Of a stretch of DNA of 64,000 nt, positions 5,831 through 57,949 are shown piece after piece (within the stretch, counting starts at the first letter, position 1; every line of letters begins with the position of its first letter). Origin of the DNA: Schistosoma haematobium (lineage: Eukaryota; Platyhelminthes; Trematoda; Strigeidida; Schistosomatidae); contig NC_067198.1 in NCBI RefSeq assembly GCF_000699445.3, positions 27,353,536 to 27,417,535 of the forward strand, in the 5' to 3' direction. Under the pieces are notes generated by a model that was not told the origin of the DNA, made no database searches, and worked only from the letters and a program-made list of their open reading frames with translations. The position numbers and the translations under genes are program-made.

Positions 5831-5913
5831 GTTTTATGATTTATTTGTTAATTACATAGATTTTCAATATTTAGCGTATTATAAATAGTTGAGATCATGA
5901 GTCATTTAAAGCT

Positions 5914-6168
5914 TAGATGGTGGTTGGAGGTAGTCCCTCAAGATTACAGGTACACCTTGCTGACGAGTGCCAATTAGCACGAAACCCGGGTCCAGGGTTT
6001 CCTGTCGACTACCTCCAACCACCATCTAAATCTCAATACATAGTGATCGCAGTGTCGAGTCACCTAGACTGGTGACCACATTGCAACATGATCGATAGCA
6101 TTCGATCTGCACTAATAAGGACTAGACAAGCATGACATTGATCACCACCCAGTGATCAATCAATTGTG
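5914..6168 (+). mobile_element. Family A SINE, plus orientation, inverted 5' tail
   Basis: Begins with a 21-base inverted copy of its own internal tail (5915-5936 against 6007-6028), followed by an intact hammerhead and the full tail ending in caattgtg. The direct repeat tcatttaaagct flanks it at 5902-5913 and 6170-6181, a 12-bp target duplication. The tRNA head is missing, so this copy is 5'-truncated. Confidence 0.85.
5954..5998 (+). ncRNA. Hammerhead ribozyme, intact
   Basis: All core bases are canonical (CUGACGA 5960-5966, GAAA 5981-5984). Stem I is 6 bp (5954-5959 with 5993-5998, one wobble). Stem II is a perfect 4 bp closed by a six-base loop. Stem III is the palindrome ACCCGGGU (5984-5991). 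Cut expected after 5992. This is one of the best-preserved ribozymes in the window. Confidence 0.9.
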
Positions 6169-6205
6169 ATCATTTAAAGCTAGATCACCATGGAAAACCT
6201 GAAAG

Positions 6206-6578
6206 CACAATTGATTGATAACTGGGTCGTGATAAGTTTCACGTGTGTCAAGTCGTTATTTAGTGCAGATCGAATGCTATCGACCATGTTGCGCTGTGGT
6301 CACCAGTCTAGGTGACTCGACACTGCGAGCACTATGTATTGAGATTTAGATGGTGGTTGGAGGTAGTCAACAGGAAACCCTGGACCCGGGTTTCGTGCTA
6401 ATTGGCACTCGTCAGCAAGGTGTACCTGTAATCTTGAGGGAACTGGTGATCCCTGGCGGATTCGATCCCGTGTCACCCAGCCTCACAGTCAGAGACGTTA
6501 CCACTGAGCTATCCGAGCCACGACTGACCTCCTGTAGGACTGAGATGTAATCCTGTAGACTACTTCCAACCACCATCT
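6206..6578 (-). mobile_element. Family A SINE, minus orientation, full unit with inverted 5' tail
   Basis: On the minus strand it starts with an inverted tail copy (6551-6578), then the unit start, tRNA head (about 6455-6525), intact ribozyme and tail to caattgtg at 6206. Flanking 12-mers aaaacctgaaag (6194-6205) and aaaatctggaag (6579-6590) are a target duplication with two substitutions. With the neighbouring A copy it forms a large inverted repeat. Confidence 0.85.
6377..6421 (-). ncRNA. Hammerhead ribozyme, intact
   Basis: Same core, stem I, stem II and palindromic stem III as the copy at 5954-5998, base for base, but on the opposite strand. Cut expected 3' of the base at 6383. Confidence 0.9.
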
Positions 6579-6630
6579 AAAATCTGGAAGCACTGGATGG
6601 CCGTTTCGTCCTATTGTGCGCATTCATTTA

Positions 6631-7348
6631 TTTTTATAGTATGATAATAAAAAAAAACCCAAAAATAATCATTGAAAGATATTGAAATATCGGACATAAT
6701 CAAGTTTACTGAATAATATAAGGTAAATAAAATTACTTTGATGTTTAATGAGTGTAAATACAAAACTATGTTGATGATGATTAGTTCTTTTCAATAAATT
6801 TTCACAAACAATCGAATGACAAACTAAGCCCATGGAAAATATGTCTATATATAGATATATCATTTTGCATAAAACATTCGTATACAAATAATTATTGGCT
6901 ACATTTATTAAGTAAACATTTAAGATGAATAAATTATTAATCAAACTATTATAAATTAAACAAAACAAGTAACTGAAGAAACCCCATAGGGATTATATAA
7001 TGAAATAAGAAAGAACAGAAGAAAAAAAGAGTATAGAAAGCTATTAAGTAAACAACAGGGGTCATTTTGAATGATCAAATAAGTGATTATATGAACGATG
7101 TTTATTAAAATGTAATAATCATTAATGAATTAGTTTTTTTTTAAATGTCTCAGCTAAATCTTAGAATATAATAAAACAAACTATGCAGTTAAAAGACAAA
7201 TGGAGTTTAACTGTTGTTATTATGTCAATAATGTTTACCTGAACAAATGATGTAATTTAAAGTGTTAAAGGTTTATCCATTCATGAATAAGGGATAATTT
7301 AAATTACTAACAAAGACATTATTGAGTTTTATATGGTTATGTATTTAG
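6631..7348. other. AT-rich spacer
   Basis: No gene, RNA or repeat recognised. The 99-codon minus-strand open frame at 6669-6968 is Ile/Leu/Asn-rich AT translation without support. Confidence 0.5.
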
Positions 7349-7360
7349 TTAAATCAAAAT

Positions 7361-7655
7361 TACTTACTTTACTTACTCACGCCTGTTAATTCTAATGGAG
7401 CATAGGCCGCCAACCAGCATTCTCCAACCCACTTTATCCTGGGCCTTCTTTTCTAATTCTATCCAATTTTTGTTCATTCTTCTCATGTCTATCTCCATTT
7501 CCCGGCGTAATGTGTTCCTTGGTCTTCCTCCGCCTGAAGTCCCTCCGGGGGTTACTGCCGGTCCCAAGCCCGGATAGAGGAGGAGGGTTGGGCATGGGGT
7601 TAGCGTCCCCATCCTGTAGAAAACTAACTCGCTAAAAAAACGCTAGCCAGAAAAA
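7361..7655 (-). mobile_element. Internally deleted RTE-clade retrotransposon (SINE-like)
   Basis: The minus strand opens with GC-rich sequence unlike the ORF regions seen in the other RTE fragments. At about 7545 it jumps directly to the last 55 or so codons of the RTE ORF ([18 protein letters not shown]... region), then ends in an AGTAAGTAA-type tandem tail. A perfect 12-bp target duplication, ttaaatcaaaat, lies at 7349-7360 and 7656-7667, so this 295-bp form is a complete insertion. An internal deletion of an RTE element is the likely origin; that the GC-rich part is the true RTE 5' end is inference. Confidence 0.8.
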
Positions 7656-8334
7656 TTAAATCAAAATGGTTTAGTGTAATTCTAGTTTATATTTTTAATA
7701 CTGATGCAATATTAATAGAATTGTCAAGCCATTTTTTAAAATTTGAAACAATTAGTCCCTTTTATAAATTTCAATAGAACAATGAGAAGACGAAGTAAGT
7801 GACCATATTGTTCGAAATGTATGATGCAAATACATCACATTTTTCAGATCAACTCTGTCTTCTCATTATTCTATCGAGACATTTTTTAAATATTTCATCA
7901 TAATAATTTATATATTTTTTTAAGGACAATTTGATAGATTTACTTATTATATATTTGTAACCTATGTAATGGTCTACTTAAACAGCTTTATTCTTCGAAG
8001 GAAATTGAGTTCATTTATATATGTGCAGTATATTTTGCTGAATACGAAATCGATAATTCATGTATACTGGTGAACTATTTTCTGTCTCATTATGTAATGT
8101 CATTGTTTCGGAAAGTAGTTACGTAAAGCAAAGTATCTCGAAACATTTAACATTAACATATTATTGAACAGATATAGTCAAGTGCTAATTTCTTCTACCC
8201 ATTTTCTTATTATCCATTTAATCATAATATGTTTATTAGTGTTAAACAATCTCGTTTGGTTGGTAACAGATAACAACCATATAAGGTCTCTTGTTTAAAT
8301 ATGTTTTGTGAGGTTCAAACGAAATATAAGCTTC

Positions 8335-9350: not shown

Positions 9351-9468
9351 GTTTCCTATGATGTTATCATCAGTAACTGCTAACTTATCCTTTCTTTTTA
9401 ATAATAATAATAACACTAACACATGATGTAATCTTTATCAAAAAACGCTATTGATTCTGTTCAGTTAC

Positions 9469-10446
9469 TTACTTACGCCTATTACTCCTAATGGAGCATA
9501 GGCCGCCGACCAGCATTCTCCAACCCACTCTGTCCTGGGCCTTCTTTTCTAATTCCATCCAATTCTTATTCATTTTTCTCATGTCTATCTCCATTTCTCG
9601 GCGTAATGTGTTCTTTGGTCTTCCTCTCCTCCTCCTTTGGCCTTGAGGATTCCATGTGAGGGCTTGTCTTGTGACGCAGTTGGGTGCTTTCCTCAATGTG
9701 TGTCCTATCCACTTCCAGCGCTTCTTCCTGATTTCTTCCTCCACTGGGATCTGCTTTGTTCTCTCCCACAGTAGGTTGTTGCTAATAGTTTCCGGCCAAC
9801 AGATCCGAAGTACTTAGCGTAGACAACTGTTAATAAACACCTGTATTTTCTGGATGATGGCTTTCGTAGTTCTCCAGGTTTCTGCCCCATACAGTAGAAC
9901 TGTCTTGACATTTGTATTGAAAATCCTGACCTTGGTGTTGGTTGACAGTTGCTTTGAGCTCCAGATGTTCTTCAGTTGTAAATATGCTGCTCTTGCTTTG
10001 CCGATCCGCGCCTTCACATCTGCATCAGATCCACCCTGTTCATCAGTGATGCTGCCCAAATATGTAAAGGTTTTTACATCTTCCAAATCTCCTCCGTCAA
10101 CTATGATTGGATTGTTGCATTCTGTATTGTATCGGAGAATCCTGCTTTTCCCTTTGTGTATATTGAGATCTACTGCTGCTGAGACTGCTGCCACGCTGGT
10201 CGTCTTCGCCTGCATCTGTTGTTGCGTTTGCGATAGAAGGGCCAGATCATCTGAGAAGTCTAGATCGTCCAACTGCATCCTAGATGTCCATTGTATCCCG
10301 TGCTTTCCTTCAGATGTTGATGTCTTCAAAATCCATTCGATCACGATCAGGAGAGAGAGAGAAAGAGTGAGAGTAAGCAACCTTGCCTGACACCGGTCTT
10401 TACTTCGAACGAGTTTGTCAACTGTCCTCCATGCACAATTTTGCAT
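9469..10446 (-). pseudogene. RTE reverse transcriptase fragment, frameshifted
   Basis: Reads in at least two frames. 9814-10446 (210 codons) has the palm motif FSDD at residues 64-67 (normally FADD), preceded by a GA-rich patch that replaces the usual RQGCLLSPFLF block and suggests microsatellite expansion with a frameshift. It continues through SDADVKARIGKARAAYLQLKN and LLYGAETWR. 9469-9744 has the C-terminal [30 protein letters not shown] region and the end CSIRSNRRK. The upstream endonuclease and fingers are absent. No function expected. Confidence 0.85.
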
Positions 10447-10475
10447 TTTAATCCATCATAGGAATTCTGTATGAT

Positions 10476-10689
10476 CACAATTGATTGATCACTGGGTGGT
10501 GATCAATCTCATGCTTGTCTAGTCCCTATTAGTGCAGATCGAATGCTATCGATCATGTTGCAATGTGGCCACCAGTCTAGGTGACTCGACACTGCGGGCA
10601 CTATGTATTGAGATTTAGATGGTGGTTGGAGGTAGTCAACAGGAAACCCTGGACCCGGGTTTCCTGTTGACTACCTCCAACCACCATCT
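10476..10689 (-). mobile_element. Family A SINE inside RTE, fold-back form
   Basis: Bounded by a perfect 13-bp direct repeat (aattctgtatgat at 10463-10475 and 10690-10702). Removing the insert and one repeat restores the RTE sequence, confirmed by the homologous stretch at 9290-9345. On the minus strand the first 33 bases (10657-10689) are an inverted copy of the sequence at 10617-10650, giving a hairpin with a 7-base loop. The body starts in the 3' half of the ribozyme (from GAAAC), so the tRNA head and the catalytic 5' half are lost. Confidence 0.9.
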
Positions 10690-10720
10690 AATTCTGTATG
10701 ATATTGACTATCTGTTCAAT

Positions 10721-11740: not shown

Positions 11741-11969
11741 GTTGATAGTCTCCTATTTAAATGATTATTCTAATGACATATTACAATCTATTCTGTTATT
11801 AAATTATAGTATACAAAAAGCCTAATTACTTTTAACGACTGTCATTAGTTATAACTGCTAATATCACAAACATTTTTAAAATTTATATTGTTTAATTTTG
11901 AAACTAAGTATGATTAGCCATCATTTAGTAGTCCGTTTTATCTTAGCGTTAAAACATATGTATTTTCAT

Positions 11970-12260
11970 AAGCAAAGATGGATGTTGGCTAGCAATCGAA
12001 TCCAAAACGAGTGTTTCGTTCTATTTGAGACTCGTCAGTTGAATGTACCTGCATTGCTGTACCCGGATTGATCATCAACTCTAGGATGCAGGTACATACG
12101 GCTGACGGGTCTTAAATAGGGCAAAATGCGCGTCCTGGATTCCATTGCTAACCACCATCCATCTTTACTCATAATGTTTATAACTGAAGGCAATGTTGAA
12201 GCAGTTGGCATAGGATGTACATAAGCCAACAAGAGATTATTTAATTGCAGTCCTAATCAT
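11970..12260 (+). mobile_element. Family C (Sm-alpha type) SINE with inverted ribozyme half
   Basis: Two ribozyme-region copies face away from a short centre: one on the minus strand (about 12000-12050) and one on the plus strand (about 12085-12150), the latter followed by the tail (ccatccatcttta..., cagtcctaatcatta). The plus copy is dead (core A9 to G, GAAA to CAAAA). The minus copy keeps the core. The tRNA head is mostly lost. Confidence 0.75.
12000..12046 (-). ncRNA. Hammerhead ribozyme (family C, variant stem I)
   Basis: CUGACGA at 12032-12038 and GAAAC at 12013-12017 are intact. Stem I still pairs although its inner pair is A-U instead of the G-C seen at 21.7 kb, and the cleavage base is U instead of C. 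Stem II contains an internal C/A mismatch, so activity is uncertain. Confidence 0.65.
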
Positions 12261-12269
12261 TAATCAGAA

Positions 12270-14640
12270 GATAAAAGCAAACATAACCAAATGAAATTTT
12301 TATTTTTACCTTCTACTATCGGGATTCATATCAGATGAATTTCATCAATGAACTGTTAATGTTTGATTTTTGTCAAAATAAGTTTAGTTAAATATTATTC
12401 ATATTGTTATAAAATTTATATCAAATATTGATAATTTTCAAAGGCCTAGGTATCTTCATTTTAGTCCAATGAACAGTGGTTGAAAAATACTATCGAGGTG
12501 TAGCCAGACAGAGGGGAAATATCTTCCAACTGAATTATGATTTTTAATGACGTTTCCGCTGATATCTATCTATAGTGAAAATTATCTATTGAATCTGAAT
12601 TATTTGTAAACTAGCTGAGATAATTTAAATTAACAAAGTATTCTGTAAATCGTTTACTCACTTTCTTATACATAATACCACTTGCAATAGATTTGGAGTC
12701 TCCATCTTACTCTACCCTAGGCTCTCCCTTCTAATTGTTTCCAAGTACTAATTCTTCTTTTGGTATCTTTAAATTGTTTGGCGAATTTCGATTTAAGCAC
12801 TGCATGTACTTCAGTGTATGATATTTCTAATAGTTTTAGTCGGTACAGTACGGAAAAAAGTTTGCACCAAATGATTACTAAGCAAATAATTGATGTTGTT
12901 TAAACTACTTTTTTTAAAAAAAACTCATCCATCACTCAGTTCAAAATCATCACAAGGTCGGATCTGTAGTTCCATGTTAGATTGAAGAATAGCTGTAATT
13001 TGTCTTTAACATGTATATACTAATTTTTAAATTATTAAAATTAAATATGGATGAAAACATGTTAGTGTAGTGTAAATTTATACTTCATGTTTAACGTATG
13101 TTGTTTTTGCCACACACAGCGAGTAGAAAAATAGAATTAACAGGTAAATGGATTTATTTTCGGAAAATCTAAGTGTAAAACAATAAATTACAGATGTATT
13201 TGCTTCAGGGAGATATTCGCTTCATTTTTAACATCAAAGTCGAGAGGAGAAAAACCACGAATTTTATTATTGTTATTGATTTCCTTCCATTTTCTTAAGC
13301 TTGTTATGTATTCGAGTCATCTTCATTTTTCTGTAATTAAATTACATTTATTCACATGAATTGCGTCATATATAATCGTACAAAGCACTATTAGTAAGTT
13401 GGTGTTTTTGCTTTAGGAAGCATAATGTTCCTTTTTAGTTTAATAATGATTTTAGTCAATATTTTAAGGTGTACGTAGACTAAACCGAATGGCGATTAGA
13501 CGTAAACAATCTACAAATGTGTATCGTCAGTCAGACAAAATAATGGAGTACATGGCATTTATGTATATCGGTTAAATCACCATATTTCATACCAACACCT
13601 CGAGGCGGAACCACGAAAACTAGTGGAAAAGTAAACATAATAAATAAAATTTTGGTAAAAGACAGTATGTAAGAAATATACCCTCACGTTTTCATTACCC
13701 GTTGTGAATATCCCATTATTAGTTACTTTTTGATCCAGTCATATTCTAACACTACTATGAACATATGTACGAATTAATACAAGGCACTAGGTCTATCATC
13801 TTTCCGAGGGCATGTTTAACAACCATTATATATTATGATGATACCATCCTAAGTATTTTATTAAGCAGATAGATTTCTTATCTGTCCCACTGAAGGTTAT
13901 ATTCAGTAAAAGTTAGTTGGGAACGTGTTAGCTACGTGTCTGTTTATGATGTTTGGAGTCTCATGGTACGTCAGCAAACTAAAGCGCCTCAGACTCTATT
14001 GTTAGACTAAGGCTTATAACAGATCATTCTGTGGCCCAACAGTATGATTCCAATTTATGGTGTTTACCAAACATACATGCTGTCAACCCTCGTATAAAAC
14101 TATCAACTTCATTTTCATTAGGGAATAATGGAGCAAGTCAAACACGAAAATAAATTTTGGATACGTATATTTCATACACTCATTGATCCAGATAGACAAT
14201 CAGAGAAAAGAAGCGGAGAAGCAGACCGAAGAAGACAAGCATTCCAACTCGATTCGATCAGGTGCGACTCATTATTTATATCTAGACAAAAATAAGTTAA
14301 AGACTTCATGAATAGGGTTAGTGATATATGCACACACTCAAATAAAATCAGTCAAGGTTAATACGTGAATAATTGATAAGGTCAAAATGTGACTCAAGAA
14401 GAATAAATAATTTAGTCTATTCGGAAGCCAGAATAACCTATGTAGGCTAGACGCAGTACTAGATATTATAAATAATTTGCCTTGATATACTTGTATACAT
14501 TAAAAAAATAAAAGTCACAATTTATATCTAACAAAAGTAGTGCTTCCAGGTTTTCAATAGTAGTTTAGCTTAAATCGACTTATGAATTCAAATATTAAAA
14601 GTAGTATAATTATAAATTAACAATCGAATAACAAATGAAT
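12270..14640. other. AT-rich spacer, nothing recognised
   Basis: No convincing coding exon. Scattered non-AT patches (13480-13620, 13900-14050) show no codon pattern or match to other parts of the window. Confidence 0.45.
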
Positions 14641-14979
14641 AATCGAGAGAAAATAGAACGGCCATTTTGGTGGAGTTTCGTTCTCTGAGCTGGATGGTTT
14701 GGTCGTGGAGCTTTCATCGTTCTTCTGAACGACATCATCAGCACAAACTTCAGATAGAAGTGAAGTGTTTGAATTTCTCCATATGTGTCTCAAAGCTTGT
14801 TCTGTGCACCTCGACGTTGATTGGTTCTTATTGACCTTAAATTTGTCGTTGTTTACTTCTTTGTTTTGGTTGTGTTTCCCATTGTTTTGATTTTTGTTCT
14901 TATGTTTGTACATGATTTTTCTGATTGGTTGATAAATTGGATTGATTTCAATATGCTTGTTGATTGCTGATTGACCTGA

Positions 14980-15915
14980 GTGCCAGGTTGTTGCTATAGC
15001 AACAACCCCAGAGCTCACAAAATCAACTGCGTACACAATTTGTTCAAGAGGGCGAGGACACACTGCAGCACACTGGCAGCACGAAGAAATGAAGAGAAAT
15101 ACCTAAAGGATGTATTTCGGGAGAACGGCTACCCCATCAACTTCATCAAAAAATACCAACCGCACGCAGCATTAGAACTCAAGTCAAGCACAAAAATCAA
15201 CAAAAGGATCACTCTACCATATATACAAGGAATATCAGAAACCGCGACGAGACTGCTGAAAACCTTCGGAATAGGTGTGGCACACAAACCGACAAAATCA
15301 CTACAATCAATCTTATGCAAACCAAAAGATGAAATAACAAAGGAAAACAAATCAAACATCATTTACAAGATAAATTGTGCCAACTGCGAAAAACACTACA
15401 TCGGACAAAGTAGACGCCCCCTTCACCTTCGTCTACATGAACATCAACTAGCAATCAAACGGCATGATATCTCTTCACTTATATCAATACACGTGGACAA
15501 CTGCGGACACTCATTCGATTGGAAAAATGTGGAAATCTTAGACAGAGGAAACTCCAAAAACACCAGAGAATTTTTAGAAGCCTGGCACTCAGGTCAATCA
15601 GCAATCAACAAGCATATTGAAATCAATCCAATTTATCAACCAATCAGAAAAATCATGTACAAACATAAGAACAAAAATCAAAACAATGGGAAACACAACC
15701 AAAACAAAGAAGTAAACAACGACAAATTTAAGGTCAATAAGAACCAATCAACGTCGAGGTGCACAGAACAAGCTTTGAGACACATATGGAGAAATTCAAA
15801 CACTTCACTTCTATCTGAAGTTTGTGCTGATGATGTCGTTCAGAAGAACGATGAAAGCTCCACGACCAAACCATCCAGCTCAGAGAACGAAACTCCACCA
15901 AAATCATCCATCTGA
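14980..15915 (+). pseudogene. PLE polyprotein C-terminus with GIY-YIG endonuclease
   Basis: A 311-codon open frame whose true PLE part starts near residue 10 (NNPRAHKINCVHNLF, the end of the reverse transcriptase/thumb region). Next comes a Lys-rich linker, then a GIY-YIG domain from about residue 128: YKINC (129-133), HYIG (139-142) and RPLHLRLHEH (146-155) with the Arg expected at the active site. A basic, Asn/Lys-rich tail follows and ends PPKSSI. PLE GIY-YIG domains nick target DNA for priming. The reverse transcriptase core is missing, so the copy cannot move by itself, yet the reading frame is undamaged, which suggests a recent insertion. The initiator Met is accidental and lies in the inverted tail. 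Confidence 0.85.
14986..15007. repeat. 22-bp perfect palindrome at PLE inversion junction
   Basis: Self-complementary 11 + 11 bases (arm ggttgttgcta), lying exactly between the inverted tail and the forward PLE body. Confidence 0.9.
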
Positions 15916-15949
15916 GCTACAAATCTCCACCATAGAACGGCCATAAAAC

Positions 15950-18062: not shown

Positions 18063-18073
18063 TAAATGATTTT

Positions 18074-18390
18074 CGATTGAGATCATGAACTGATTGATGT
18101 TAGACCACCATTGAAAACCTGGAAGCATTGGAAGGCCGTTTCGTCCTAAACCTACATTAACACCACTGTATGCCGGCTCAGTGGTCCAGTACGTTAAGCG
18201 TTCGCGTGCAAGACTGAAGGCCCTGAGTTCGCATCTCGCGGGGAGCGGGGTCGTGGATGCGCATTGCTGAGGAGTCCCATACTAGGACGAAACGGCCGTT
18301 CAGTGCTTCCATGTTTTCAATGGTGGTTTGGCACCAATCGGTTCATGATCTCAATCAAAAATCTGACAATCTCCGCAACCCCTAAACGGA
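18074..18390 (+). mobile_element. Family B SINE with inverted 5' tail
   Basis: Starts with an inverted copy of the tail and ribozyme 3' half (18074-18150), then the leader stub, tRNA head (18172-18240), ribozyme and tail running on to ctccgcaacccctaaacgg. The 11-bp direct repeat taaatgatttt flanks it at 18063-18073 and 18391-18401. Confidence 0.88.
18261..18306 (+). ncRNA. Hammerhead ribozyme (family B)
   Basis: Core intact (CUGAGGA 18267-18273, GAAA 18289-18292). Stem I is 6 bp with one wobble, stem II a perfect 4 bp, stem III palindromic. The cleavage base is U (18300) instead of C, an allowed but slower triplet. Confidence 0.85.
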
Positions 18391-18401
18391 TAAATGATTT
18401 T

Positions 18402-19901: not shown

Positions 19902-20145
19902 TGGTAGTCAACAGGAAACCCTGAACCTAGGTTTCATGCTACTTGACACTCGTCAGAAAGTTGTACCTGTAATCTTGACGGAACTGATTCTCCTTGACGG
20001 ATTTAATCCCATGTCACCCAGCTTTACAATCAGAGACGTTACCACTGAGCTATCTGGGCCACTTGGTCGATAAGATTCGATCTGTACCAAGAAGGACCTA
20101 ACATACATGACATTGATCACCACATAGTGATCAATCAATTGTAAA
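19902..20145 (-). mobile_element. Family A SINE with long inverted tail before the tRNA head
   Basis: On the minus strand an inverted tail (about 20060-20145) is joined directly to the tRNA-like head (about 19990-20060), then the ribozyme (19918-19962); the 3' end is cut short at gactacc. It has the same inverted-tail design as the other A copies, but no target duplication was found. Confidence 0.8.
19918..19962 (-). ncRNA. Hammerhead ribozyme (family A, variant stem III)
   Basis: The core is intact but stem I has mispairs and the cleavage base is U. Stem III is ACCUAGGU, changed at two positions relative to ACCCGGGU yet still a perfect palindrome. Confidence 0.75.
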
Positions 20146-21570: not shown

Positions 21571-21935
21571 GATACATGGTGGCCAGCAGTGGTATCCAAG
21601 CCGAGCGTTTCATTATATTTGAGACTCATCAGCTGAGTACGCCTGCACCCCAGAGTTGATGTCTATTCGAGGATTATACGATGACGTTTAAAGTGAATGA
21701 TACTGGATTCGGGTTCTGGAGTGAACATCAACTCTGGGATACAGTCGTATCCAGCTGACGAGTCAAGAATAGGAGGAAACACATGTCCTGGATTTCACTG
21801 CTAGCCACCATTCATTACTGCTTATAACGCTTATGATTTCAGGTCACATTGAAGCAATCCACACATGATGTATATATGTCGATAAGAAACTAATCAATCG
21901 CAGTCCTAAACATCAATGATCAGATTCAGATAAAC
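21571..21935 (+). mobile_element. Family C SINE, two ribozyme regions in inverted orientation
   Basis: Left: a minus-strand ribozyme and tail start (21571-21650). Then a decayed tRNA head (B-box region near 21710), a plus-strand ribozyme and the long tail ending near gcagtcctaaacatcaatga. It has the same 5' inverted tail as the A and B copies. The left ribozyme is dead (stem III and cleavage triplet lost). Confidence 0.8.
21749..21793 (+). ncRNA. Hammerhead ribozyme (family C)
   Basis: CUGACGA (21755-21761) and GAAA (21776-21779) intact. Stem I pairs AUCCAG with CUGGAU perfectly. The inner pair of stem II is G/G rather than G-C, which should reduce activity. Cut after C at 21787. Confidence 0.8.
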
Positions 21936-22126
21936 AATACAAAAATGAAATAAAAATGTTTCATTCTGAAAAATCTTACAAATCAGTCATCTATCTGTAA
22001 CAGTGATTTATTAATGAATACCTTATTCAACAATTAAAATATTTTAATTATGTATTTTGTTTTTTCAAAATACTTTTATTGCTATAGTCTACGAGTTCTT
22101 TTTTTATTAAACATATTTAATTTCTT

Positions 22127-22450
22127 CACTTGGTAGTGTTTGGCTTGAATCTTCCCATTGAGGTTTAAGATTGCAACTGATCAGTCTGTTATTGGCATAT
22201 GTGCATACTATGCGTATGCCTCGATATTGTCTTAATTCACAAGCTTTTTGTAAGCAATGATGGATAGTGGCTAGCAGTGGAATTCGGAACGCGCGTTTCG
22301 TCCTATTTGGCACTCATCAGCGCGCATCCTGGATTCCACTGTTAGCCACTATCCATCTTTATATGTATTAATTGATATGAATATCAAACAACTTGACAAA
22401 GTGAAACACAAATCAAAGTAAAAATATCTCTTGATCATTGCTTACAAAAA
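22127..22450 (-). mobile_element. Family C SINE with 14-bp target duplication
   Basis: Flanked by a perfect 14-mer, atatttaatttctt, at 22113-22126 and 22451-22464. On the minus strand an inverted tail segment comes first. It is interrupted by about 80 bp of unrelated sequence (22356-22433) between two matching arms. The ribozyme core and the tail follow. The arms match 22251-22290. Confidence 0.85.
22280..22330 (-). ncRNA. Hammerhead ribozyme core, stem I broken
   Basis: CUGAUGA (22314-22320) and GAAAC are canonical and stem III is the palindrome ACGCGCGU, but the sequence 5' of the core comes from the inverted arm, so stem I cannot form and stem II has a G/G pair. Unlikely to cut. Confidence 0.7.
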
Positions 22451-22644
22451 ATATTTAATTTCTTGTTTTCATTTTTGGCATTGATTATAATTTCTGTATT
22501 ATGAAATAATGTTTATTCTATTGATATAGATTTGTGTTGAGAGCTACCTGTAAAAAATTCCATTCTACCTATTCTCTTTAAGATTGTGTACATTTCTTGA
22601 ATGATGCATAACTTCGATATTTCTTTTGAAATTTTCTATCACAA

Positions 22645-33305: not shown

Positions 33306-34003
33306 GATTCATTTTTATTCATGTTGCATTATGTCAACTGTATTTTCTGTCAGATGATTACATGAATATTATTATACTATTATTTTCAACCAAAACGTTA
33401 AAACTCGAACACTTTTTTTAATAAAAGCATTGAAAATTGGTTTTCAAGTACCATCTATATAACCTAGACTAAGAAATATAACACTTTACTGAAATCTTCC
33501 AGATGGCCTGTTTGAATATCTGGGCTACCTGTTCCTGTCTTATGGATATTTCAACAAGTTATCTGTTTTCATGTTTGTTTTAACACATCATTATGCCCAT
33601 TAGTTGCATGACCTATTTGTGACAAGTTTACGGTATTTCACTGCACAAGTTACAAAATGGCCCAATCAGAGATATCGTGGTTGCTGGCAATATACATCGA
33701 AATAAATGTATATTATTCAAATGTCGATTTCCGAACTACTAACAGTTAACTGGCGATCACCCAATATTTATCGTCAGGATCGATCAAGAAATAAGAAAAT
33801 GAAACTTATTGAAATACTCTGCGCTGAGACTTATATATTATACCAAAAACATAATATTGAATAAAGCCACTAGGTAATAATAATATTTTATTTTATATAA
33901 TAATACAATAATCATACTTATATATTGAAAACCTGTAGTAATAATAATAATAATCAATAAATTCATATAACTCAATTTATTTTTTAGTGAATATAAATTC
34001 AGT

Positions 34004-34303
34004 AGTTGAAATCATGAGTCAATTGAAGCTAGACCACAATGGAAAACCTGGGAGTTAGACATTAACACCGTTGGATGCCGGCCGGCTCAGTGGTCTAACA
34101 ATTAAGCGTTCGCGCGCAAGATTGATAGGTCCTGGATTCGGATCTCGCGAGGAGGCGTTATGGTGGATGCGTACTGCTGAAGAGTCTCATACTAGGACGA
34201 AACAGTTGTCCAGTACTTCCAAGTTTTCTATGGTGATCTAGCTTCAATTGACTCATGATTTCAACTATTGAAATTATTAAAATCTTCACAAAACTCCTTC
34301 TGA
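34004..34303 (+). mobile_element. Family B SINE with 15-bp target duplication
   Basis: Perfect 15-mer gaatataaattcagt at 33989-34003 and 34304-34318. An inverted tail of about 45 bases (34004-34050) is followed by the forward unit: leader stub, tRNA head (34077-34150), ribozyme and tail. It shows the insertion signature most clearly of the B copies. Confidence 0.92.
34171..34216 (+). ncRNA. Hammerhead ribozyme with compensatory change
   Basis: Core CUGAAGA (34177-34183) and GAAAC intact. Stem I is GUACUG/CAGUAC: the second pair is U-A where the other B copies have C-G, so both strands changed and pairing is kept. Stem II is 4 bp with a terminal wobble. The stem III loop has changed too. Cut after C at 34210. 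Confidence 0.88.
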
Positions 34304-34319
34304 GAATATAAATTCAGTG

Positions 34320-36570
34320 AAAATTTCCTGTGAGAATTATTTGAACAAATAAGAATTTTTAACAAATAATAAAAGATTGTTTTGTTTGTCAATACAAAAT
34401 AAAACGATGAATCAGCAAAAAGAGATTTTCTTTTTCTTTACTGAATTATGTTGTTTACAATGTATATTGTAAAATGATTAACATTTATTGGACATAAGTT
34501 ACAACTCATCAAAAATTCAATATGAATTGTTTATATGTTACTTATTTCTGTGGAATCTTCTTTTCTTTTATCTGGTATTCATTCCAATGTATTCATTGTG
34601 AAGAAAAAGAAAAGCCAACAGTACTGGTTTATTCATTCGTTAGTCAATCAAGAAAATGTAAGTTTAAATAATCATGAATATAATTTATTTGAAAGTGAAT
34701 AGGTTGATAGTGAATAAACAATAATTGAAGAGAAAAACGTTTCAAGTATGTTAGCGTACATCAACAAAGTATACAAATAAATAAACGTCAAAGAAACTAA
34801 ATCAAGGTCGATTTTTGTTCTTTGCTACGTTTTTTAAAAACATATTTCAACTTGGTGTATATTTAAAATAATTTAATCAACCGTAAGTATTTTAAATAAT
34901 CTAATGGGTAATCAATTGAGAACTTATCTAAGCTCGTTTACATTGACTAAGATTGAGAAAATGATGAATGGAAATTGTAACGAATTCTAGAAAAGTATGT
35001 ATGTTTTGTTGGCTAAGTTAAGCATATTCTCTACTGATGAATGATTTTAATGAATTTTTCAGGCTGATTTAGTAAATGATGATGAGGAAGAAATATTCTC
35101 AAGTATGGTCAAAAATCTTTGTTCAGTAATTTGCTTGAATAATTATTGGACAAAAGGCTTTGATTGAGACAAACCTAATAGATATAATTTGATATCTAAG
35201 CTAAATTGTAGAAAACACTTTCTATTATTCTGAATGTTTACATATTTGTTCAGTGTGTGATTACAGTTATTGCACAATCTCATATTCTCTGAAATGAACA
35301 GTCATTGTAGTGAAATATCAAGTTTAAAAAAAACCGAAAAATTGCAAAATATTTGACCATAGTGTTTGAGTTATACAATCTAGAGTAATGTCAAACGATA
35401 TCTTTAGATGAGGAGCGAGTGTCTTTTAATTATGTGAGAACTTGGTTCAGTTGTAATGATTTTTTTCTTTATGCTAATGTTCTCATATCGTTCACACTTT
35501 ACAGCAACCTTTTTGATAGTCATTCATCTTTTGGTAAACACTGAACTTTTACTAAAGCATATTTATCAAATAGTTCTGTTTTTCAGTTGAATAGTTGTTG
35601 AACATTATGGAAATCGTAAACATGTAAACTCGTTACTTCACCAGAAATACTATCACTTCACATAACTTCTTTAAAAATAGGTTAGATGAGAGATTTTGAA
35701 TCAGTACATTATGCCTTTCTAGAGTTTAACCATACCTGAGCAAATGTTATTCTATCCTTCATTAACAAATTCGACGGTGGTAACGTAATGGTACTAAAAG
35801 TGAAAGTGCAAGCATTTTAGGTACTAAGAGGTGATTATACTAATTCTTGCTAAGCAACCAGAGTTTAAGACTTCTACTATATATGATTTATGTATGATTC
35901 TGTGTACACTTGAAATCTAGTAGTATATGTCATAAATCACGTAGGTTTCCAAGTCCAGCTAACTGAAATATTATTTAACAATCAGAACAATAATATCATA
36001 GTAAATATTTAATGTATTTTTGAAAAGATCCTAAATTTATGTAATCGGTTTTCAAAGACAATGATTATTCACCTTTAATTTCAAATGGATTTTATGTTTT
36101 GATTATGAGAAACCATTTGGGTGAAATATTAAAACAAACTAAAATGTTTGTTTTTATTCCCAGAAAATGCATGAATTCATACATACAATGTTATGAAATC
36201 TTCAGGTAAATACAGAATGTCAACTAAAGTGCAATGATGTGGGGAATTTTTGATGCAAAACTTTGAACTTTAAGCTCAAAACTCTTTGCGTTTATCTTAA
36301 ACTGACATTTCGAAGTACTTAAGCTATAAACGTAATCTGTTGCTAAATGAGGTTGCATTAGTATTAACAAAATTACAAACTTTACGATGAATGTTCCAGA
36401 TGATAACTGAGTGATTGTTTGGTTTTATATAATTTGACTTGAACAGGAAATAAACTTACTATCTACAGTTTATTCTTCCTCTACATCAACTTAACTGATT
36501 TGTTTTAAGACTATTTAATTTTGTCATGTTTTATCTGCCTTCAACCAAATTGTTAATTTTACTGAATCAA
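34320..36570. other. AT-rich spacer
   Basis: No gene or repeat recognised over 2.2 kb. Confidence 0.45.
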
Positions 36571-36574
36571 TATA

Positions 36575-36800
36575 TGTTAGACCACCACTGAAAGCCTGAA
36601 AGTGGTAAACGGCCGTTTTGTTCTGGTATAGGTCTCCTCAATAGTGCGTGTTCATGATCCCGCACGTGGTGTAGAAATCGATGACCTCCGATTTCGCGCG
36701 AATGTTCAACCCCCAGACCACTGAGTCGGCATCAAACGGTGTTAATATCTATCTTCAAACAATCCACTATATCGCGCTACCATTTTCCATTATGTTCAGT
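36575..36800 (-). mobile_element. Family B SINE, decayed
   Basis: Minus strand: leader, tRNA-like head (about 36660-36735, gagtcggcatc end), ribozyme remnant with core changes (UUGAGGA, AAAAC) and tail. The ribozyme is dead. Confidence 0.78.
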
Positions 36801-36859
36801 GAGTAAATGCCTTCAGTGATTACAGGTTTTCAATTTAGTCTAACACTGATCAGTTCAGG

Positions 36860-38377
36860 ATTCCAAAGAAATTAAATAATCTTCACAACCATAAACTGAA
36901 AACCGTTAATTGTTCTGGAAATTAAAGATGCGTTATAAATGGTGAGATTTTGTCTGTGTAATTCAATTAGGCTACTCTTGAAGACTTACTAATGTTAATG
37001 ATTTTTCAGTCATTTTATCTGATCTTTCAAGTTCACAAATGATACAGTTTGTGTTTTGACCGGATTATTCTTACATTCAACATTATCTCATTTAACTTGT
37101 GTATGTAGCTTAATAATTATGGGTTAATAACTATAAAACCAAACCAATTTATTGTGGAAAATTATTGTCTCCTGAAGTACTTTTTAATACTATATATTGT
37201 TTTTTAAACTGTTTTCATAGTACTATTTTTCATTGATGTTCATGTAATTATAGAGTCCTTTGTGTATATTTGAAATGATTGTAAATAACTTCAATAAATT
37301 TAATCATTGGAAAGAAAAATTCCTTTATTGAATTGATTTGATATTTTACATTCTTGAGAAAACAAAACGACTGCTGATAAGATTATAAGTTAATTCACAT
37401 TACGTATACCTCAATGTGCTTACTGTACACCTCTTATGGTAGAAACATTTGTATTTCAATCATATATTGGATAATTTTATAGGTTCAAGAAAGCGTTATA
37501 TGTAAAATTATACATCAGAGTGCTATTTCACCTATTTGATACATTCATTATAAAGAGACTTGACATTTACTCCTAAAGTTTTGTACCGCATATATTTATA
37601 AATGAATCAAGTCCTTGATAAATCTTATTTCATTTCTAACTTCTGATTGTTTACAATAACAATTCCTAACATGATCTTCAAGCATGATAAGTTGAATTGA
37701 TATCTTTAAACTAATAATTGAAAAAAAATAGTACCAAACAATTATGTTAATAAAACAAAAAAATGTTCTTCAACGTCGCTTAAAATAAAAATAAGTATGT
37801 TTTTTTTTAATTTTTCCGATATAGTTTTAATGAATAATCTTTTTTGATTCATATAGTTAAATCGTGAATGATTGTGTTTATGAAATTACCTTCGTGATTT
37901 AGTGTTATTATTAGTGAATTTCATTTTCGCTACCAGGATATTCAGTACACTTAAAGACAGTTATACATAACATGCAATGTAAGCATAAAAAGGAATTCTG
38001 TTATTGTAAACCAAATGAAATGTCATAAGCTTTGATCATAATAACAATAATAATAAGAATGATTGATAATAATGATCATTTCAAATCATTTCTTAGCTTA
38101 ATAAGTAAACTTTGAATATTTTTTTTATATTGTTACCTTCCATTAAAACCGATGCATTAATGTTAATCATTATCAAAATAATAATTTAAATATATTAATG
38201 ACTGTAATATTTAATAAACTAATAGACCATAATTAAAATGATCATTTACATTCTTTTTGTCCAAGAAAACTTTAAACAATTTCTTTAATGAATGTTTATA
38301 TGAATTTCTAGTTCTTGGTGTTCATATTTCAAACTTGACTGTTTTTCTTTCTTTCTTCTTTTTCCTATCTTTTGCAA

Positions 38378-50599: not shown

Positions 50600-51580
50600 C
50601 TTACTTACTTACTCCTGTTATTCCTCGTGAAAGAGCATAGGCCGTCCACCAGCATTCTTCATCCAACCCTGTCCTGGGCAATCCTTTCCAGCAATTTCCA
50701 GTTGTTATTCATCCTTCTCATATTTGATTCTATTTCCCGACGTAATGTATTCTTTGACCTTCCTCTTTTCCGCTTCCTTTCAGAGTTACAAGTAAGTGTT
50801 TGCTTCGTGATGCAGTTTATGATTTCCTCAGTTCATGTCCTACCCACTTCCAAAATCATTTTGCAACTTACTTCTCAGATGAAAGTTGGTTTGTGCTCTC
50901 CCACACAAGGCTATTGCTGATGGTATCCGGCCAATGGATGTTGAGTATCTTGCGTAGACAGCTATTTATAAATACTTGTACTTTCTTGATTGTGGTTGTT
51001 GTAGTTCTCCAAGTTTCAGCTCCATACAGTAGAATTGCCTTGACGTTCGTATTGAAGATTCTCACTTTGATATTGGTTGAAAGTTGTTTCGAGTTCCATA
51101 TGTTCTTCAACTGTAGGAATGCGTCCCTTACTTTGCCAATCCTCGCCTTTACGTCTGCATCTGAACCTCCTTGTTCATCGATGATGCTTCCCACGTATGT
51201 GAAAGATTCTAAATCTTCCGGAGTTTCATCATAAAGAGTGATTGGATCGGTGTTCTCTGCTTTGAATTTGAGGACCTTGGTTTTCCCCTTGTGTATGCTG
51301 AGGCCTACTGATGCAGAGACTGCTGCTACACTGGCTGTCTTTATCTGCACTTGTTTGTGTGTATGCGATAGGAGGGCTAGGTCATCTGCGAAGTCCAGAT
51401 CGTCTAATTGGTTCTGAGCTGTCCATTGTATTCCGTGTTTTCCTTCAGATGTCGAGGTCTTCATAATCCAGTCGACCACGAGAAGAAAGAGGAAGAGAGA
51501 GAGTAAACAGCCTTGTCTGACTCCGATCCTTACTTTGAATGCATCTGTCAGCTGTCCTCCATGCATCATTGACATAAGAC
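50600..51580 (-). mobile_element. RTE-clade LINE, 5'-truncated
   Basis: Minus-strand fragment ending in an (AAGT)n tail (50600-50615) and starting in the reverse transcriptase palm. Best preserved RTE copy in the window. Upstream endonuclease and fingers are absent. No target duplication was identified. Confidence 0.85.
50868..51575 (-). pseudogene. RTE reverse transcriptase palm to C-terminal region
   Basis: 235 open codons. Motif GVRQGCLL at residues 18-25 (followed by Ser-Leu where RTE proteins usually have Ser-Pro), LDFADD with the catalytic FADD at 62-65, SDADVKARIGKVRDAFLQLKN and LLYGAETWR further on. It then shifts frame before the C-terminal zinc-like and RRGRPKNT regions (continuing in 50600-50870). 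A truncated copy of about a quarter of the full protein. The Met start is incidental. Confidence 0.85.
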
Positions 51581-51659
51581 TTAATAATCTTTAGTTCAAT
51601 AGTTAAAATATCGAATCGTACATTATGATCATAATGATTTTGGCATATTAGAGATATCA

Positions 51660-53040: not shown

Positions 53041-53044
53041 ATAA

Positions 53045-53314
53045 TGTGATGTGCGCTACTTATGTTGACATATATAGTATATAACGCTAGTCAGGAATAG
53101 AATATGTGGCAGCAGAACGTTGAGAAGATCGAGGAAAAAAAGAATGGGAACAGAAATTAATTAATATAAAAATGCAGGAACATTAAAGTCTGAGACAATT
53201 AATAAACATTTTGCAAATGAAGAATTGTAGTATGATTTTTCTATTTTACCAAGTAACTCTAAACTTTTTGCTAAATATAATCGCTTGTCCTCACCCGTGT
53301 TCTTCTACACTACA
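53045..53314 (-). repeat. LTR-like repeat, copy 3
   Basis: On the minus strand runs from TGTAGTG to a CACATCACA end (270 bp), TG...CA as in LTRs, and aligns with 25670-25925 and 48285-48475. No flanking duplication was found. Confidence 0.55.
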
Positions 53315-54280: not shown

Positions 54281-54284
54281 CGAC

Positions 54285-54825
54285 ATTCATCCCCCAAATG
54301 TTCCGGTACGGCCAAGGGTGGAGAGAGTCCGCTCTCCTTCTCGAAATGCTCTCACATGGCCACGCGTATATAGCCTGTGCAAGGGAAGTCTTATTCACTG
54401 CCTTCTCGCGGCATTACCGTTGTTTACGAAATCGAGAGGATGAAAAGCGAATATCCGGTGCTTTAATCGAGTTGGTGGAAATGAAGGATTTACCAAGGGG
54501 AGTTGGAAAACTATGAGTTCAAACCAATGGTGCACATAGGCTCCAGAATCCTGAGGGGACAAATGGCGTGTGGACTAGTTATTGGTCACCAGCTACCAAA
54601 GGACTGCATCTCCTGACGTTGCTTCACTGCCTTGTGGATCAGGCTTGTAGGTTGAAGGTTCTGATTGTGGCCCCCCTAAGAAAACAACCTGCTTCGGTTT
54701 GGGCACCCGGATAGTATCACAGTCTATACACAGATCAAGTGACTTGTGTGGCGCATTTGTATTCAGTGCTCCTTTGTACCAATATTTGTGTGTTTAAATA
54801 AGTAAAATAAATAAAACAAACTAAC
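54285..54825 (+). mobile_element. Long tRNA-Gly-type repeat (family D), 5'-truncated
   Basis: Aligns along its length with 58400-58935: ctctcacatggccacgc, gcactgtgcctt-like blocks, gtgcacat.ggctccag, gggcaccc.ga.agtatcac and an A-rich AAATAAATAAA end. The tRNA-like start is missing. Open frames in it are not conserved between copies. Confidence 0.8.
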
Positions 54826-55264
54826 CATAGATTGATTTAAATCACTTATGTCAACTTGACAGAATTATACTCATACTTTTCTAAGGATATGTTAACAAAA
54901 CGTCTTTGTTCGTAGTAACAAAATTTCGTATCTACATATATAAAGTCTTGAACAAGCCTTGTTTTGATAAACTAGCAAAGAAAACTAAAGACCGATAGTT
55001 AGACGATTCAACGTCTGGGAAATCTTAGATCAAAATTTCCAGGTAGTTAGCACTCCTGAGATAGATCTAGGTGACAAATGTCAGCTAGTATAGAATCGCG
55101 AGATAAAGCTTCTGGTGACTGCCTACAATCCTCTGATATGAAACAAGAGCCATAGTGACACTGAGTTATAGTATAGAGAGCTAATGCAAGATGTCTACTT
55201 ATTTTAATTTTTCACATACAGAATTGATAAGATAAATGTTCAAAAAAATTACATAGGTAGTAGA

Positions 55265-55550
55265 AGCCGTGACCAGTTAAGCTAATCCGTGTCGGGGAGA
55301 AACAGGTGTCCACCTCAGTACAATGAAGATGGTCGCGCAACTTCGTGGATTGGTTGAGGTTAGGCATTAACACCATTGGATGCCGGCTCAGTGGTCCAGT
55401 AGGTTATACTGAAGGCCCTGAGTTCGAATCCTGTGAGCGGGATCTCGGATACACTCTGCTGAGAAGTCCCGCAATAGGACGAAACAGCCATCCAGTGCTT
55501 TCAGGTTTTCAATGTTGGTCTAATATCAATCGACTCATGATCTCAATTAA
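55265..55550 (+). mobile_element. Family B SINE, dead ribozyme
   Basis: Leader (gctaatccgtgtcgggg), tRNA head with a short deletion after the A-box, ribozyme region and tail. The core reads CUGAGAA: the essential G8 is now A, and stem I has mispairs. It cannot cleave. Confidence 0.85.
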
Positions 55551-55559
55551 TTGCTTACT

Positions 55560-56180
55560 TTGAGTTTTGGCATAAGCATTTTATGTATGATACATCTATG
55601 TAAGATTTAGTAAATAGATGTTTTATATTGAACACTTTTTTTAACGATTACGTTTTTCAAAATGATAAAGGGAGCTATGTGTATGAGATTACGTAATTAA
55701 CCTTTCATTTGTGTTTATCAGATTCATTGACAAAATGATGAGATTTTCCCCCATAATATAGAAACTTTTAAGAAAGTATCCAAAGTTGTTATTTGATATT
55801 GAATGCTAGAAATGGTAGACTTATTTTACAATGCTATTAATTATTAAGTTCGATTCAGTGAAATGATGATTAAATTGCACCTTCAATGTAATAACAAATA
55901 AATCATGAACTTTAATAGATTATAAAAAGTGATAGTAAATGTTAAACATTTCTAAATTAAATCATATGTTACTATCTGTGATATATATATATAGAATATG
56001 TTAATAAGAAAATAAGATAATACATGATGTAATAGTTAGCTTAACTTTTTCTTTATGAAATATTGACTTACAACTATTTTTTGATCTTCTATTATAAAAC
56101 TGAATAGATGATCATTTATTTCATCAATATACATGACATTTATTTTATAATCATAATATGTATATATAACTGAATTATTT
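55560..56180. other. AT-rich spacer
   Basis: Nothing recognised. Confidence 0.45.
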
Positions 56181-56195
56181 AATTCAAACTATTAG

Positions 56196-56631
56196 TTTTT
56201 GATTGAGATCATGAACCGATTGATGTTAGACCACCACAATTGAAAACCTGGAAGCACTGGACGGCCGTTTCGTCCTATTGCGGGACTCCTCAGCAGTGCG
56301 CATCCACGAACCCGCTCGCGGGACTCGAACCCGGGGCCTTCGGTCTCGCGCGCGAACGCTTAACCAACTAGACCACTGAGCCGGCATCTAACGGTGATAG
56401 TTTCTAACATCAACCAATCCACGAAATTGCGCGACCAACTTCCGTTGTACTGAGGTAGATACCTGTCTCTACCCGATAAGGATTAGCTCCACTGGTCACG
56501 GCTTCTCACTAGAACTCCGAGAATTCCCTTCACGAAGCTAGTCATTAGTGAGCACATGTTGATTGCTAGTATAGGGGTTGTGGAGATTTCAATCAAAAAC
56601 TTAATAATCTCCACAACCCCTATACTAGTAA
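56196..56631 (-). mobile_element. Family B SINE, most complete copy
   Basis: Target duplication tcaaactattag (56184-56195) against tcaaactatcag (56632-56643), one mismatch. On the minus strand: inverted tail (56590-56631), full leader (about 56400-56590, including agctaatcc and the caatcaacatgtgctcacta block), tRNA head (56310-56390, A-box TGGTCTAGTTG, B-box GGTTCGAGTCC), intact ribozyme and tail. About 435 bp in all. It is the best reference copy of the family. Confidence 0.92.
56254..56299 (-). ncRNA. Hammerhead ribozyme, intact (family B)
   Basis: CUGAGGA and GAAA canonical. Stem I is a perfect 6 bp (56294-56299 with 56254-56259), stem II a perfect 4 bp, stem III the palindrome ACGGCCGU. 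Cut 3' of the base at 56260. Best B-family ribozyme here. Confidence 0.92.
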
Positions 56632-56649
56632 TCAAACTATCAGGTCTAT

Positions 56650-57645
56650 CACTATGTTTTTAGTATTGATTATAAGCGTAGAAATCAACGTCGAAAAAAA
56701 AGAAGCAAACCTCATTATCTTTTGTTTTTATTATGATTAACCTAAACTATTTTCTACTGACATCATAATTTCAATGTTATTTATATAAAACTTAAAAAAA
56801 AACAGTTAAGATTTTCTTCTTTTTCTAAAAAATATACACAGTTAAGAGCAAAAAAAAGAAAAAAATGGAAAAAAATGTATATAAGCGATAGAAACGAATG
56901 TTTACAACAGTGAATATTGAATTAACTTTAAATAATGGACACATTTTATTGTTTTTACTAATTAGAACAATTTATAATCAAATAACACATAAACATAATG
57001 CATATAAATGAATAAAAATTACAAATGAAAGAATAATAACAAAGAATTGTTAGTTCTGGTGATTATGTTGTGGTTCATGTTTTCTTATAGTTTAGTCAAT
57101 TACATTTGAAGTTCTAGATATAAATAATGATAATAATAGTAATAATAACTTTCATATAGCTGATAAGAAATCAGTTAGAACAATTAAATTTGTTCATTAA
57201 AAACTGATTTAATCATAATTAAAAGTAAAATAATCGTAAAATGTCGATTGCATAATAATTGGTTTTTAACTAAACATTGTAAATGAATCCTATAACTATT
57301 AAAGTATAAGATTTAATTGTTCTTCATTTTAGTATCCTGATATCTTATATCTGTGCGCTTCACAAATGATGTTTAATACTTTGGGAACTAATGACTTTCA
57401 TTATGAAATCTGAATCATATCATTTGTTCTTAGAAATGCAAATACATAAGGTACCAAAATATTTTCTATATTCATGAAGCATTTAAATTATTATTTGAGG
57501 TTTTGAGGTTTTTACTGGAAGAATTTGTTCTTCATTTTTTTAACGAATCATATTTTTTTAGATAAACGTTACTCGTTTATAAGTAACTAGAGACCTACGG
57601 ATTTTTACTATCCACTGAAGTTCTATAAATTTAACTCATTCTAAA
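56650..57645. other. AT-rich spacer
   Basis: Nothing recognised beyond A and T runs. Confidence 0.45.
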
Positions 57646-57658
57646 AGAAACTCAGTAA

Positions 57659-57936
57659 TGGTGAAGACTTGTAGCTCAGGTGGATGATTTTGATGGACTT
57701 TTGTTCTCTGAGTTGTATGGTTTGGTCGTGAAACCTTCATCGTTATTCTGAACGACATCATCAGCACAAACTTCAGATAGAAGTAAAGCGTTCGAATTTC
57801 TCCATATGTGTTTCACAGCTTGTCCTGTGCACCTCGATGTTGATTGGTTCTTGTTGACCTTAAATTTGTCATTGTTTACTTCTTTGTTTTGGTTGTGTCT
57901 CCCATTTCCATCCAGCTCAGAGAACAAAACTCCATT
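57659..57936 (-). mobile_element. PLE 3' fragment with inverted tail
   Basis: On the minus strand a short inverted tail (57908-57936) is joined to the forward 3' end of the PLE (57907 down to 57659). Flanked by agaaactcagtaa (57646-57658) and agaaactaagtaa (57937-57949), 12 of 13 identical. Encodes only the last 80 or so codons after the GIY-YIG domain. Confidence 0.88.
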
Positions 57937-57949
57937 AGAAACTAAGTAA

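What the first reader, a model, noticed from the sequence alone, without database searches (positions are those of the whole stretch)
5902..57949. PLEs and three ribozyme-SINE families share one insertion signature
At least eight insertions have an inverted copy of the element's own 3' tail at the 5' end; seven of these also have an 11-15 bp target duplication: family A (5914, 6206, 10476), B (18074, 34004, 56196), C (22127) and two PLEs (14666, 57659). The RTE insertion with a clear 12-bp duplication (7361) lacks the inverted tail. The simplest reading is that PLE machinery, with its GIY-YIG nuclease, moves the hammerhead SINEs in trans and tends to copy the tail twice in opposite directions.
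Basis: partly seen in the sequence, partly recalled or inferred. Interest (0 to 1): 0.9.

Follow-up and report, generated by a model that had tools for sequence, protein, structure and literature searches.

The report
Ribozyme SINEs with Penelope-type insertion ends
In a blood-fluke genome, small ribozyme-bearing repeats insert with the same unusual double-ended pattern as Penelope retrotransposons, which suggests that Penelope enzymes, not ordinary LINE enzymes, copy them around.

Summary
In detail: all nine insertions named carry an inverted tail and a target duplication, six exact and three with one or two mismatches. One correction matters. The inverted copy is not of the true 3' end but of an inner site (T), 38-59 nt after the hammerhead cut; the other end runs on to a second site (E). 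Each insertion is two cDNAs head to head, one started at T, one at E.

In 264 kb (window plus 20 random regions), 28 of 92 copies of families A, B, C and two Penelope-like (PLE) families are double-ended; RTE and a hammerhead-free SINE give 0 of 23. Targeted copies agree: A 16 of 24, B 6 of 12, PLE 5 of 40 regions, RTE 0 of 8 informative.

A purified Anolis PLE starts reverse transcription at two adjacent internal sites and extends both target strands (PMC11167929), which predicts this pattern. PLE mobilisation of retrozymes was already proposed (PMC7229834); the insertion-signature evidence appears new. SINE and PLE 3' ends share no significant sequence, and action in trans was not shown.

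The parts
5902..6181 (+). Family A insertion 5914-6169 between 12-bp duplications (5902-5913, 6170-6181); T' 5914-5935, E 6029-6169, hammerhead 5954-5998 (+)
6197..6592 (-). Family A insertion 6208-6581, imperfect duplication (9 of 11); E end at left, T end at right; hammerhead 6377-6421 (-)
7349..7667 (-). RTE-like fragment with exact 12-bp duplication and no inverted tail (control)
7730..7890 (.).
10464..10702 (-). Family A insertion 10476-10690, exact 12-bp duplication; E left (140 nt past T), 34-nt exact arm from the right end
11963..12293 (.). Family C head-to-head copy, T left, E right, hammerheads on both strands; duplication not secure
14653..15944 (+). PLE insertion 14666-15931, exact 13-bp duplication; 322-nt exact inverted arm; E 29 nt; open frame 14980-15915 with GIY-YIG-like fold
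18063..18401 (+). Family B insertion 18074-18390, exact 11-bp duplication; E 34 nt; hammerhead 18261-18306 (+)
21571..21943 (.). Family C head-to-head copy, T left, E right; duplication not secure
22115..22464 (-). Family C insertion 22127-22452, exact 12-bp duplication; E 118 nt at left, T end at right; hammerhead 22282-22327 (-)
33989..34318 (+). Family B insertion 34004-34303, exact 15-bp duplication; 30-nt exact arm; E 37 nt; hammerhead 34171-34216 (+)
36552..36917 (-). Older family B insertion 36565-36904, duplication 11 of 13, T end (a few nt short) left and E right
56184..56642 (-). Family B insertion 56195-56631, duplication 10 of 11; T-started arm is the long one, E 31 nt at right; hammerhead 56254-56299 (-)
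57646..57949 (-). PLE insertion 57659-57936, duplication 12 of 13; E end left, T end right

Best explanation
Families A, B and C are hammerhead SINEs of the SMalpha/retrozyme kind. Their RNA is inserted by Penelope-like enzymes acting in trans. The GIY-YIG nuclease cuts both target strands about 12-13 bp apart. Each 3' overhang then primes reverse transcription, one at inner site T just after the hammerhead and one at site E further 3'. The two cDNAs are joined head to head, and repair leaves the target duplication. Shown: the two-site, two-end structure, the duplications, and no such ends in the RTE copies examined. Inferred: that PLE protein does it in trans, dual priming as the cause, and the joining step.
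For: De novo pattern: 7 exact against 0 in 100 simulations in the window. Double-ended 28 of 92 against 0 of 23, p 7e-4; random regions alone 17 of 61 against 0 of 16, p 0.011. Dispersed A copies chosen on body+E sequence: 16 of 24 double-ended, 15 of these T+E with a duplication, exact in 11. B: 6 of 12, all six T+E. PLE: 5 of 40 regions show the second arm, all five T+E with exact 9-13 bp duplications. Single-ended copies use T and E about equally (31 and 30, 3 untyped), so both are real start sites. Mixed ends in 23 of 27 typed double-ended copies (p 1.6e-4). GIY-YIG-like fold. Anolis PLE: two internal start sites, both strands cut and extended.
Against: No significant shared sequence between the T/E regions of the SINEs and of either PLE. 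T-to-E spacing differs (A 139, C 118, B 30, PLE 28 in the window copy and 37 in L074), whereas the published tail is 30-40 bp. In the random regions 44 of 61 copies are single-ended. In the 264 kb sample only 14 of 26 double-ended clusters have a duplication scoring 9 or more (shuffled pairs 2.8%). Duplication length does not discriminate: RTE also gives 12 bp. Two T+T and two E+E pairs were typed by the script; one T+T (L026) looks genuine.
Confidence: 0.72

Rival explanations
1. A LINE enzyme (RTE) moves the SINEs and the inverted ends come from L1-style twin priming.
For: RTE copies are frequent and give 12-bp duplications too.
Against: No double end in the 16 RTE copies with an intact 3' end in the 264 kb sample, in 4 further ones, or in 12 targeted ones, 8 of which had their 5' end in view. 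RTE ends in an AAGT repeat not seen at the A, B or C ends. Classical twin priming inverts upstream sequence without copying the same stretch twice (recalled).
Confidence: 0.06
2. Self-priming: the RNA or first cDNA folds back and is copied on itself, as suggested for rotifer PLE palindromes (PMC3846280, Discussion read).
For: Head-to-head palindromes are frequent; the hammerhead stem III is palindromic (read by eye).
Against: Fold-back copying should give the same outer end on both sides; instead 23 of 27 typed copies have one T and one E end.
Confidence: 0.1
3. An unknown PLE-like or other reverse transcriptase, not the two PLE families seen here, moves the SINEs by the same mechanism.
For: No shared sequence between the SINE ends and the two PLEs sampled.
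Against: PLEs with the same signature exist in this genome. No other candidate was looked for across the genome.
Confidence: 0.1
4. DNA-level origin: inverted-repeat DNA transposon, or later insertion or recombination at the element ends.
For: Inverted ends look like terminal inverted repeats.
Against: Exact arms vary from 12 to 322 nt, one end overshoots the arm by 29-141 nt, bodies are truncated at variable points, and one duplication flanks the whole composite.
Confidence: 0.02

Closest known systems
Penelope-like elements with inverted pLTRs and optional tail (Adineta Pen families, PMC3846280; Anolis Poseidon, PMC11167929)
   Different: A, B and C are short, and no PLE sequence similarity was found at their T/E ends
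Metazoan non-LTR retrozymes (PMC7229834) and schistosome SMalpha SINEs (named in PMC8490949; Ferbeyre 1998 not read)
   Same: Type I hammerhead, about 350-bp unit, tandem copies; PLE proposed as mobiliser
   Different: The passages seen give target duplications only as larger than 4 bp; 'inverted' does not occur in the main text of PMC7229834
L1 twin priming (recalled)
   Same: Both target ends prime on RNA
   Different: Here the same tail is copied twice and the two start sites are fixed by element sequence

Membership tests
PLE with endonuclease (14666) | GIY-YIG endonuclease | tested here: met
   Foldseek top hit I-TevI catalytic domain, prob 0.95, TMt 0.66, but E-value only 0.31; relative P0009, 61% identical over 68%, is named GIY-YIG; Pfam gave no hit
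PLE with endonuclease (14666) | Telomerase-like reverse transcriptase | tested here: inconclusive
   The copy is 5'-truncated; some relatives of its ORF carry RVT_1
PLE with endonuclease (14666) | Inverted arm, tail on one side, target duplication | tested here: met
PLE with endonuclease (14666) | Minimal hammerhead | tested here: inconclusive
   CTGATGA..GAAAGCTC read by eye; no Rfam hammerhead match
Metazoan retrozyme / SMalpha SINE (A, B, C) | Type I hammerhead | tested here: met
   13 RF00163 matches in the window
Metazoan retrozyme / SMalpha SINE (A, B, C) | 150-450 bp unit in tandem copies | tested here: met
   Family A arrays and partial dimers; B partial tandems; C not tested
Metazoan retrozyme / SMalpha SINE (A, B, C) | Circular RNA | not testable with these tools
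   No RNA data
tRNA-type SINE | tRNA-like promoter | tested here: inconclusive
   A/B-box-like stretches seen by eye; ARAGORN found no tRNA in the window
LINE(RTE)-dependent SINE | 3' end shared with the LINE | tested here: not met
   RTE ends in an AAGT repeat; the A, B and C ends displayed do not
Inverted-repeat DNA transposon (MITE) | Matching repeats at both outer ends | tested here: not met
   One end runs 29-141 nt past the arm

The most novel reading that the evidence does not exclude
One PLE ribonucleoprotein holds a single ribozyme SINE RNA, perhaps circular, with one reverse transcriptase unit seated at T and the other at E, and each unit takes one end of the cut target. Hammerhead SINEs would then be SINEs moved by Penelope rather than LINE enzymes, with circRNA as template. 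Hints: mixed T+E ends, and family A cDNAs that pass one unit overshoot by only 35-113 nt in 18 of 19 cases, as expected if the enzyme goes once round a circle and then meets its own product.
Probability: 0.3. Interest if true: 0.87.

Novelty: new variant of a known kind. Interest (0 to 1): 0.72.

Why it matters
Who moves animal retrozymes is an open question, with PLEs a proposed candidate (PMC7229834, PMC7761336, PMC8969392; passages seen). A readable insertion scar turns that into a count anyone can make in any genome, and offers many natural copies from which to read how PLE integration works, including the tendency of the two ends to use different start sites.

Tried and rejected
Shared 3' sequence between SINEs and PLEs: negative in two tests, the second with the longer E end of PLE copy L074. 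Same-RNA test by comparing the two arms of 12 A copies: own partner best or tied in 7 of 12, inconclusive. The microhomology script did not score the E side and its numbers are not used; only its printed junctions are. RNA folding of single sequences: the window PLE T site lies in an AC-rich loop closed by an 8-bp stem; A, B and C do not show that fold. Pfam, PDB-sequence and Rfam searches did not recognise the PLE domain or its small hammerhead. Duplication length as a discriminator was dropped because RTE also gives 12 bp. A mixed-end count of 25 of 27 was my hand-made figure and is replaced by 23 of 27 as typed by script. A loose-threshold genome search for RTE 3' ends was asked eight times and never answered.
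Full report
WHAT IS THERE. The window lies in a 400-Mb genome (G000:C4:27353536-27417535). The window holds 13 type I hammerheads at Rfam's cut-off, in three short-repeat families called A, B and C here. The 14666 copy has an ORF whose relatives include a protein named GIY-YIG and proteins with a reverse transcriptase domain. Its predicted fold matches the I-TevI catalytic domain best (probability 0.95, but E-value 0.31), from a modest model (pLDDT 61 overall, 10-residue blocks from about residue 90 to 150 at 89-93).

THE OBSERVATION. Each named insertion was checked. Six of nine duplications are exact over 11-15 bp, two have one mismatch, and A6206 has two. The architecture was also searched without family knowledge. 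In the window, 7 places have an exact 11-bp duplication next to an exact 16-bp inverted arm, against none in 100 Markov sequences; one of the 7 is an internal artefact of family A. In the 20 random regions (200 kb, of which 6,449 bases read N), 2 exact and 5 within one mismatch were found, against none in 20 simulations. Of those 5, one (L014) has its duplication inside B sequence and two belong to one insertion (L018), so they stand for three insertions: L012 (PLEb), L018 (B) and L022 (B).

THE CORRECTION. The inverted segment is not the last part of the element. In element orientation the order is body, hammerhead, site T, site E. T ends 38 (A), 59 (B), 43 (C) and 43 nt (PLE) after the hammerhead cut as read by eye. 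E ends 139, 30, 118 and 28 nt beyond T; in PLE copy L074 it is 37. One end of the insertion starts at T and the other at E. In the 15 A copies displayed, the E end reads CAATCAATTGTG in 13, ends at the same base in one more (L044), and is two bases shorter in L043, while the T end varies between unit positions 211 and 221.

GENOME SAMPLE. In the 20 random regions plus the window, copies with an intact 3' end were paired by one rule for all families. Double-ended: A 3 of 15, B 13 of 48, C 5 of 15, PLE 5 of 12, PLEb 2 of 2, together 28 of 92. RTE 0 of 16 and the hammerhead-free SINE S2 0 of 7 (p 7e-4). The random regions alone give 17 of 61 against 0 of 16 (p 0.011), the window alone 11 of 31 against 0 of 7 (p 0.07). 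Family A alone is not significant against the controls (p 0.054). Six further control ends in other loci gave 0. Of 12 targeted RTE copies (12 of 40 places listed), none has an inverted tail at the 12-mer level; in 8 the true 5' end is in view, and two have exact 12-bp duplications. With these the contrast is 28 of 92 against 0 of 37 (p 2e-5). The pairing rule splits or merges some nested copies: A5914 is missed by it, and one B pair with a 224-nt gap may be two insertions. In a related clustering of the same sample, 14 of 26 double-ended clusters have a duplication scoring 9 or more, against 6 of 84 single-ended, 1 of 20 RTE, 0 of 12 S2 and 2.8% of shuffled pairs; so nearly half of the double-ended clusters have no clear duplication, as expected for old copies or imprecise edges.

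TARGETED COPIES. The A set is 24 dispersed copies: 20 fetched and L002-L005. They were picked on body+E similarity, not on T'; at least four further dispersed copies listed were not fetched. Sixteen are double-ended. Fifteen have T at one end, E at the other and a duplication, exact in 11; L037 has an odd inner end (262) and no duplication. The eight single-ended ones all end at E. The 15 duplications score 10-15; pairs of flanks from different loci average 5.5, with 4.3% at 9 or more and the 99% point at 14. The duplications begin with A in 10 of 15 and end with T in 10 of 15 (each p 0.007). Of 12 B copies, six are double-ended T+E (one with its T end 9 nt short), one is complex and five single; duplications of the six score 8-12. 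For the PLE, 5 of 40 scored regions show an opposite arm; all five are T+E (one T end blurred by likeness to the duplication), and all five have exact duplications of 9-13 bp. The other 35 regions show one arm within whatever span the search scored. These sets were chosen with queries that include E, so they cannot exclude T+T copies.

TWO DIFFERENT ENDS. Among the 28 double-ended copies, 23 are T+E, 2 E+E, 2 T+T and 1 untyped (23 of 27, p 1.6e-4 against equal use). On reading, one E+E is T+E over the whole insertion (L018), one E+E has an inner left end (L022), one T+T is the wide-gap pair in L027, and one T+T (L026) looks genuine with an 11-of-13 duplication. Single-ended copies use T 31 and E 30 times, 3 untyped. 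So each site is usable alone, yet the two are mostly divided between the two ends.

HOW IT LIKELY WORKS. A purified Anolis PLE protein cuts both strands, extends both, and starts at two adjacent internal RNA sites; the stretch between them is the known genomic tail (PMC11167929, parts 1 and 2 of 4 read). There the start sites did not differ between strands, so the division seen here is an addition, not a prediction, of that work. Rotifer PLEs show inverted arms with a tail on one arm and 8-10 bp duplications (PMC3846280, passages and Discussion). The schistosome SINEs fit the same scheme. Fourteen of 16 T-started A strands run past the hammerhead cut, L038 by two nt only, so the template was mostly uncleaved there; in Anolis, ribozyme mutants did not affect insertion. 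That the PLE does this in trans is inference.

TEMPLATE. Nineteen A strands run beyond one 347-nt unit; 18 stop 35-113 nt later, before the next T site, and one runs on for 262 (from segments; L005, L039 and L042 were not counted). This suits a circular template with limited displacement, or an RNA whose 5' end is an upstream hammerhead cut. The set was selected for full-length matches, so this is a hint only.

WHAT IS KNOWN AND NEW. PLEs as movers of retrozymes were proposed from co-occurrence and shared hammerheads (PMC7229834, part 2 of 6 and passages; PMC7761336, passages; PMC8969392, passages). In nine literature searches of openly licensed papers, no listed title or opening of an abstract, and no passage read, reports double-ended T/E insertions for hammerhead SINEs; most subscription papers are not held. 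PMC8490949 (passages) names the SMalpha family and its hammerhead. PMC6431247 was seen in passages. The statement that family C has the SMalpha hammerhead is from recall.

Noticed in passing
L006-L008; G000:C8:171310-181249, C2:73474731-73478958, C1:57769265-57773835, C2:88081467-88084454: Family A also forms tandem arrays with a unit of about 344 bp.
   Followed up: no
window 7741-7879 and L012:8450-9371: A second PLE family with the same T+E signature; L012 appears to encode a GIY-YIG-like domain on its minus strand (read by eye only).
   Followed up: partly
window 54291-54806 and 58355-58935: A tRNA-like SINE without an Rfam hammerhead (S2), 10 more matches in the random regions; none double-ended.
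   Followed up: partly
L009: 4617, 6434, 8251: Three B-like matches repeat every 1,817 bp, a tandem repeat of unknown kind.
   Followed up: no
window 9814-10455 and 50868-51590 (minus): RTE-like ORFs carry DUF6451 after a reverse transcriptase match.
   Followed up: no
L002, L003, L029-L048: Duplications at family A insertions tend to start with A and end with T, as if both strands were cut after a T.
   Followed up: partly
window 19903-20142 and 60985-61230: Further A and B copies that look double-ended by eye but whose duplications are unclear or lie in a TA repeat.
   Followed up: partly
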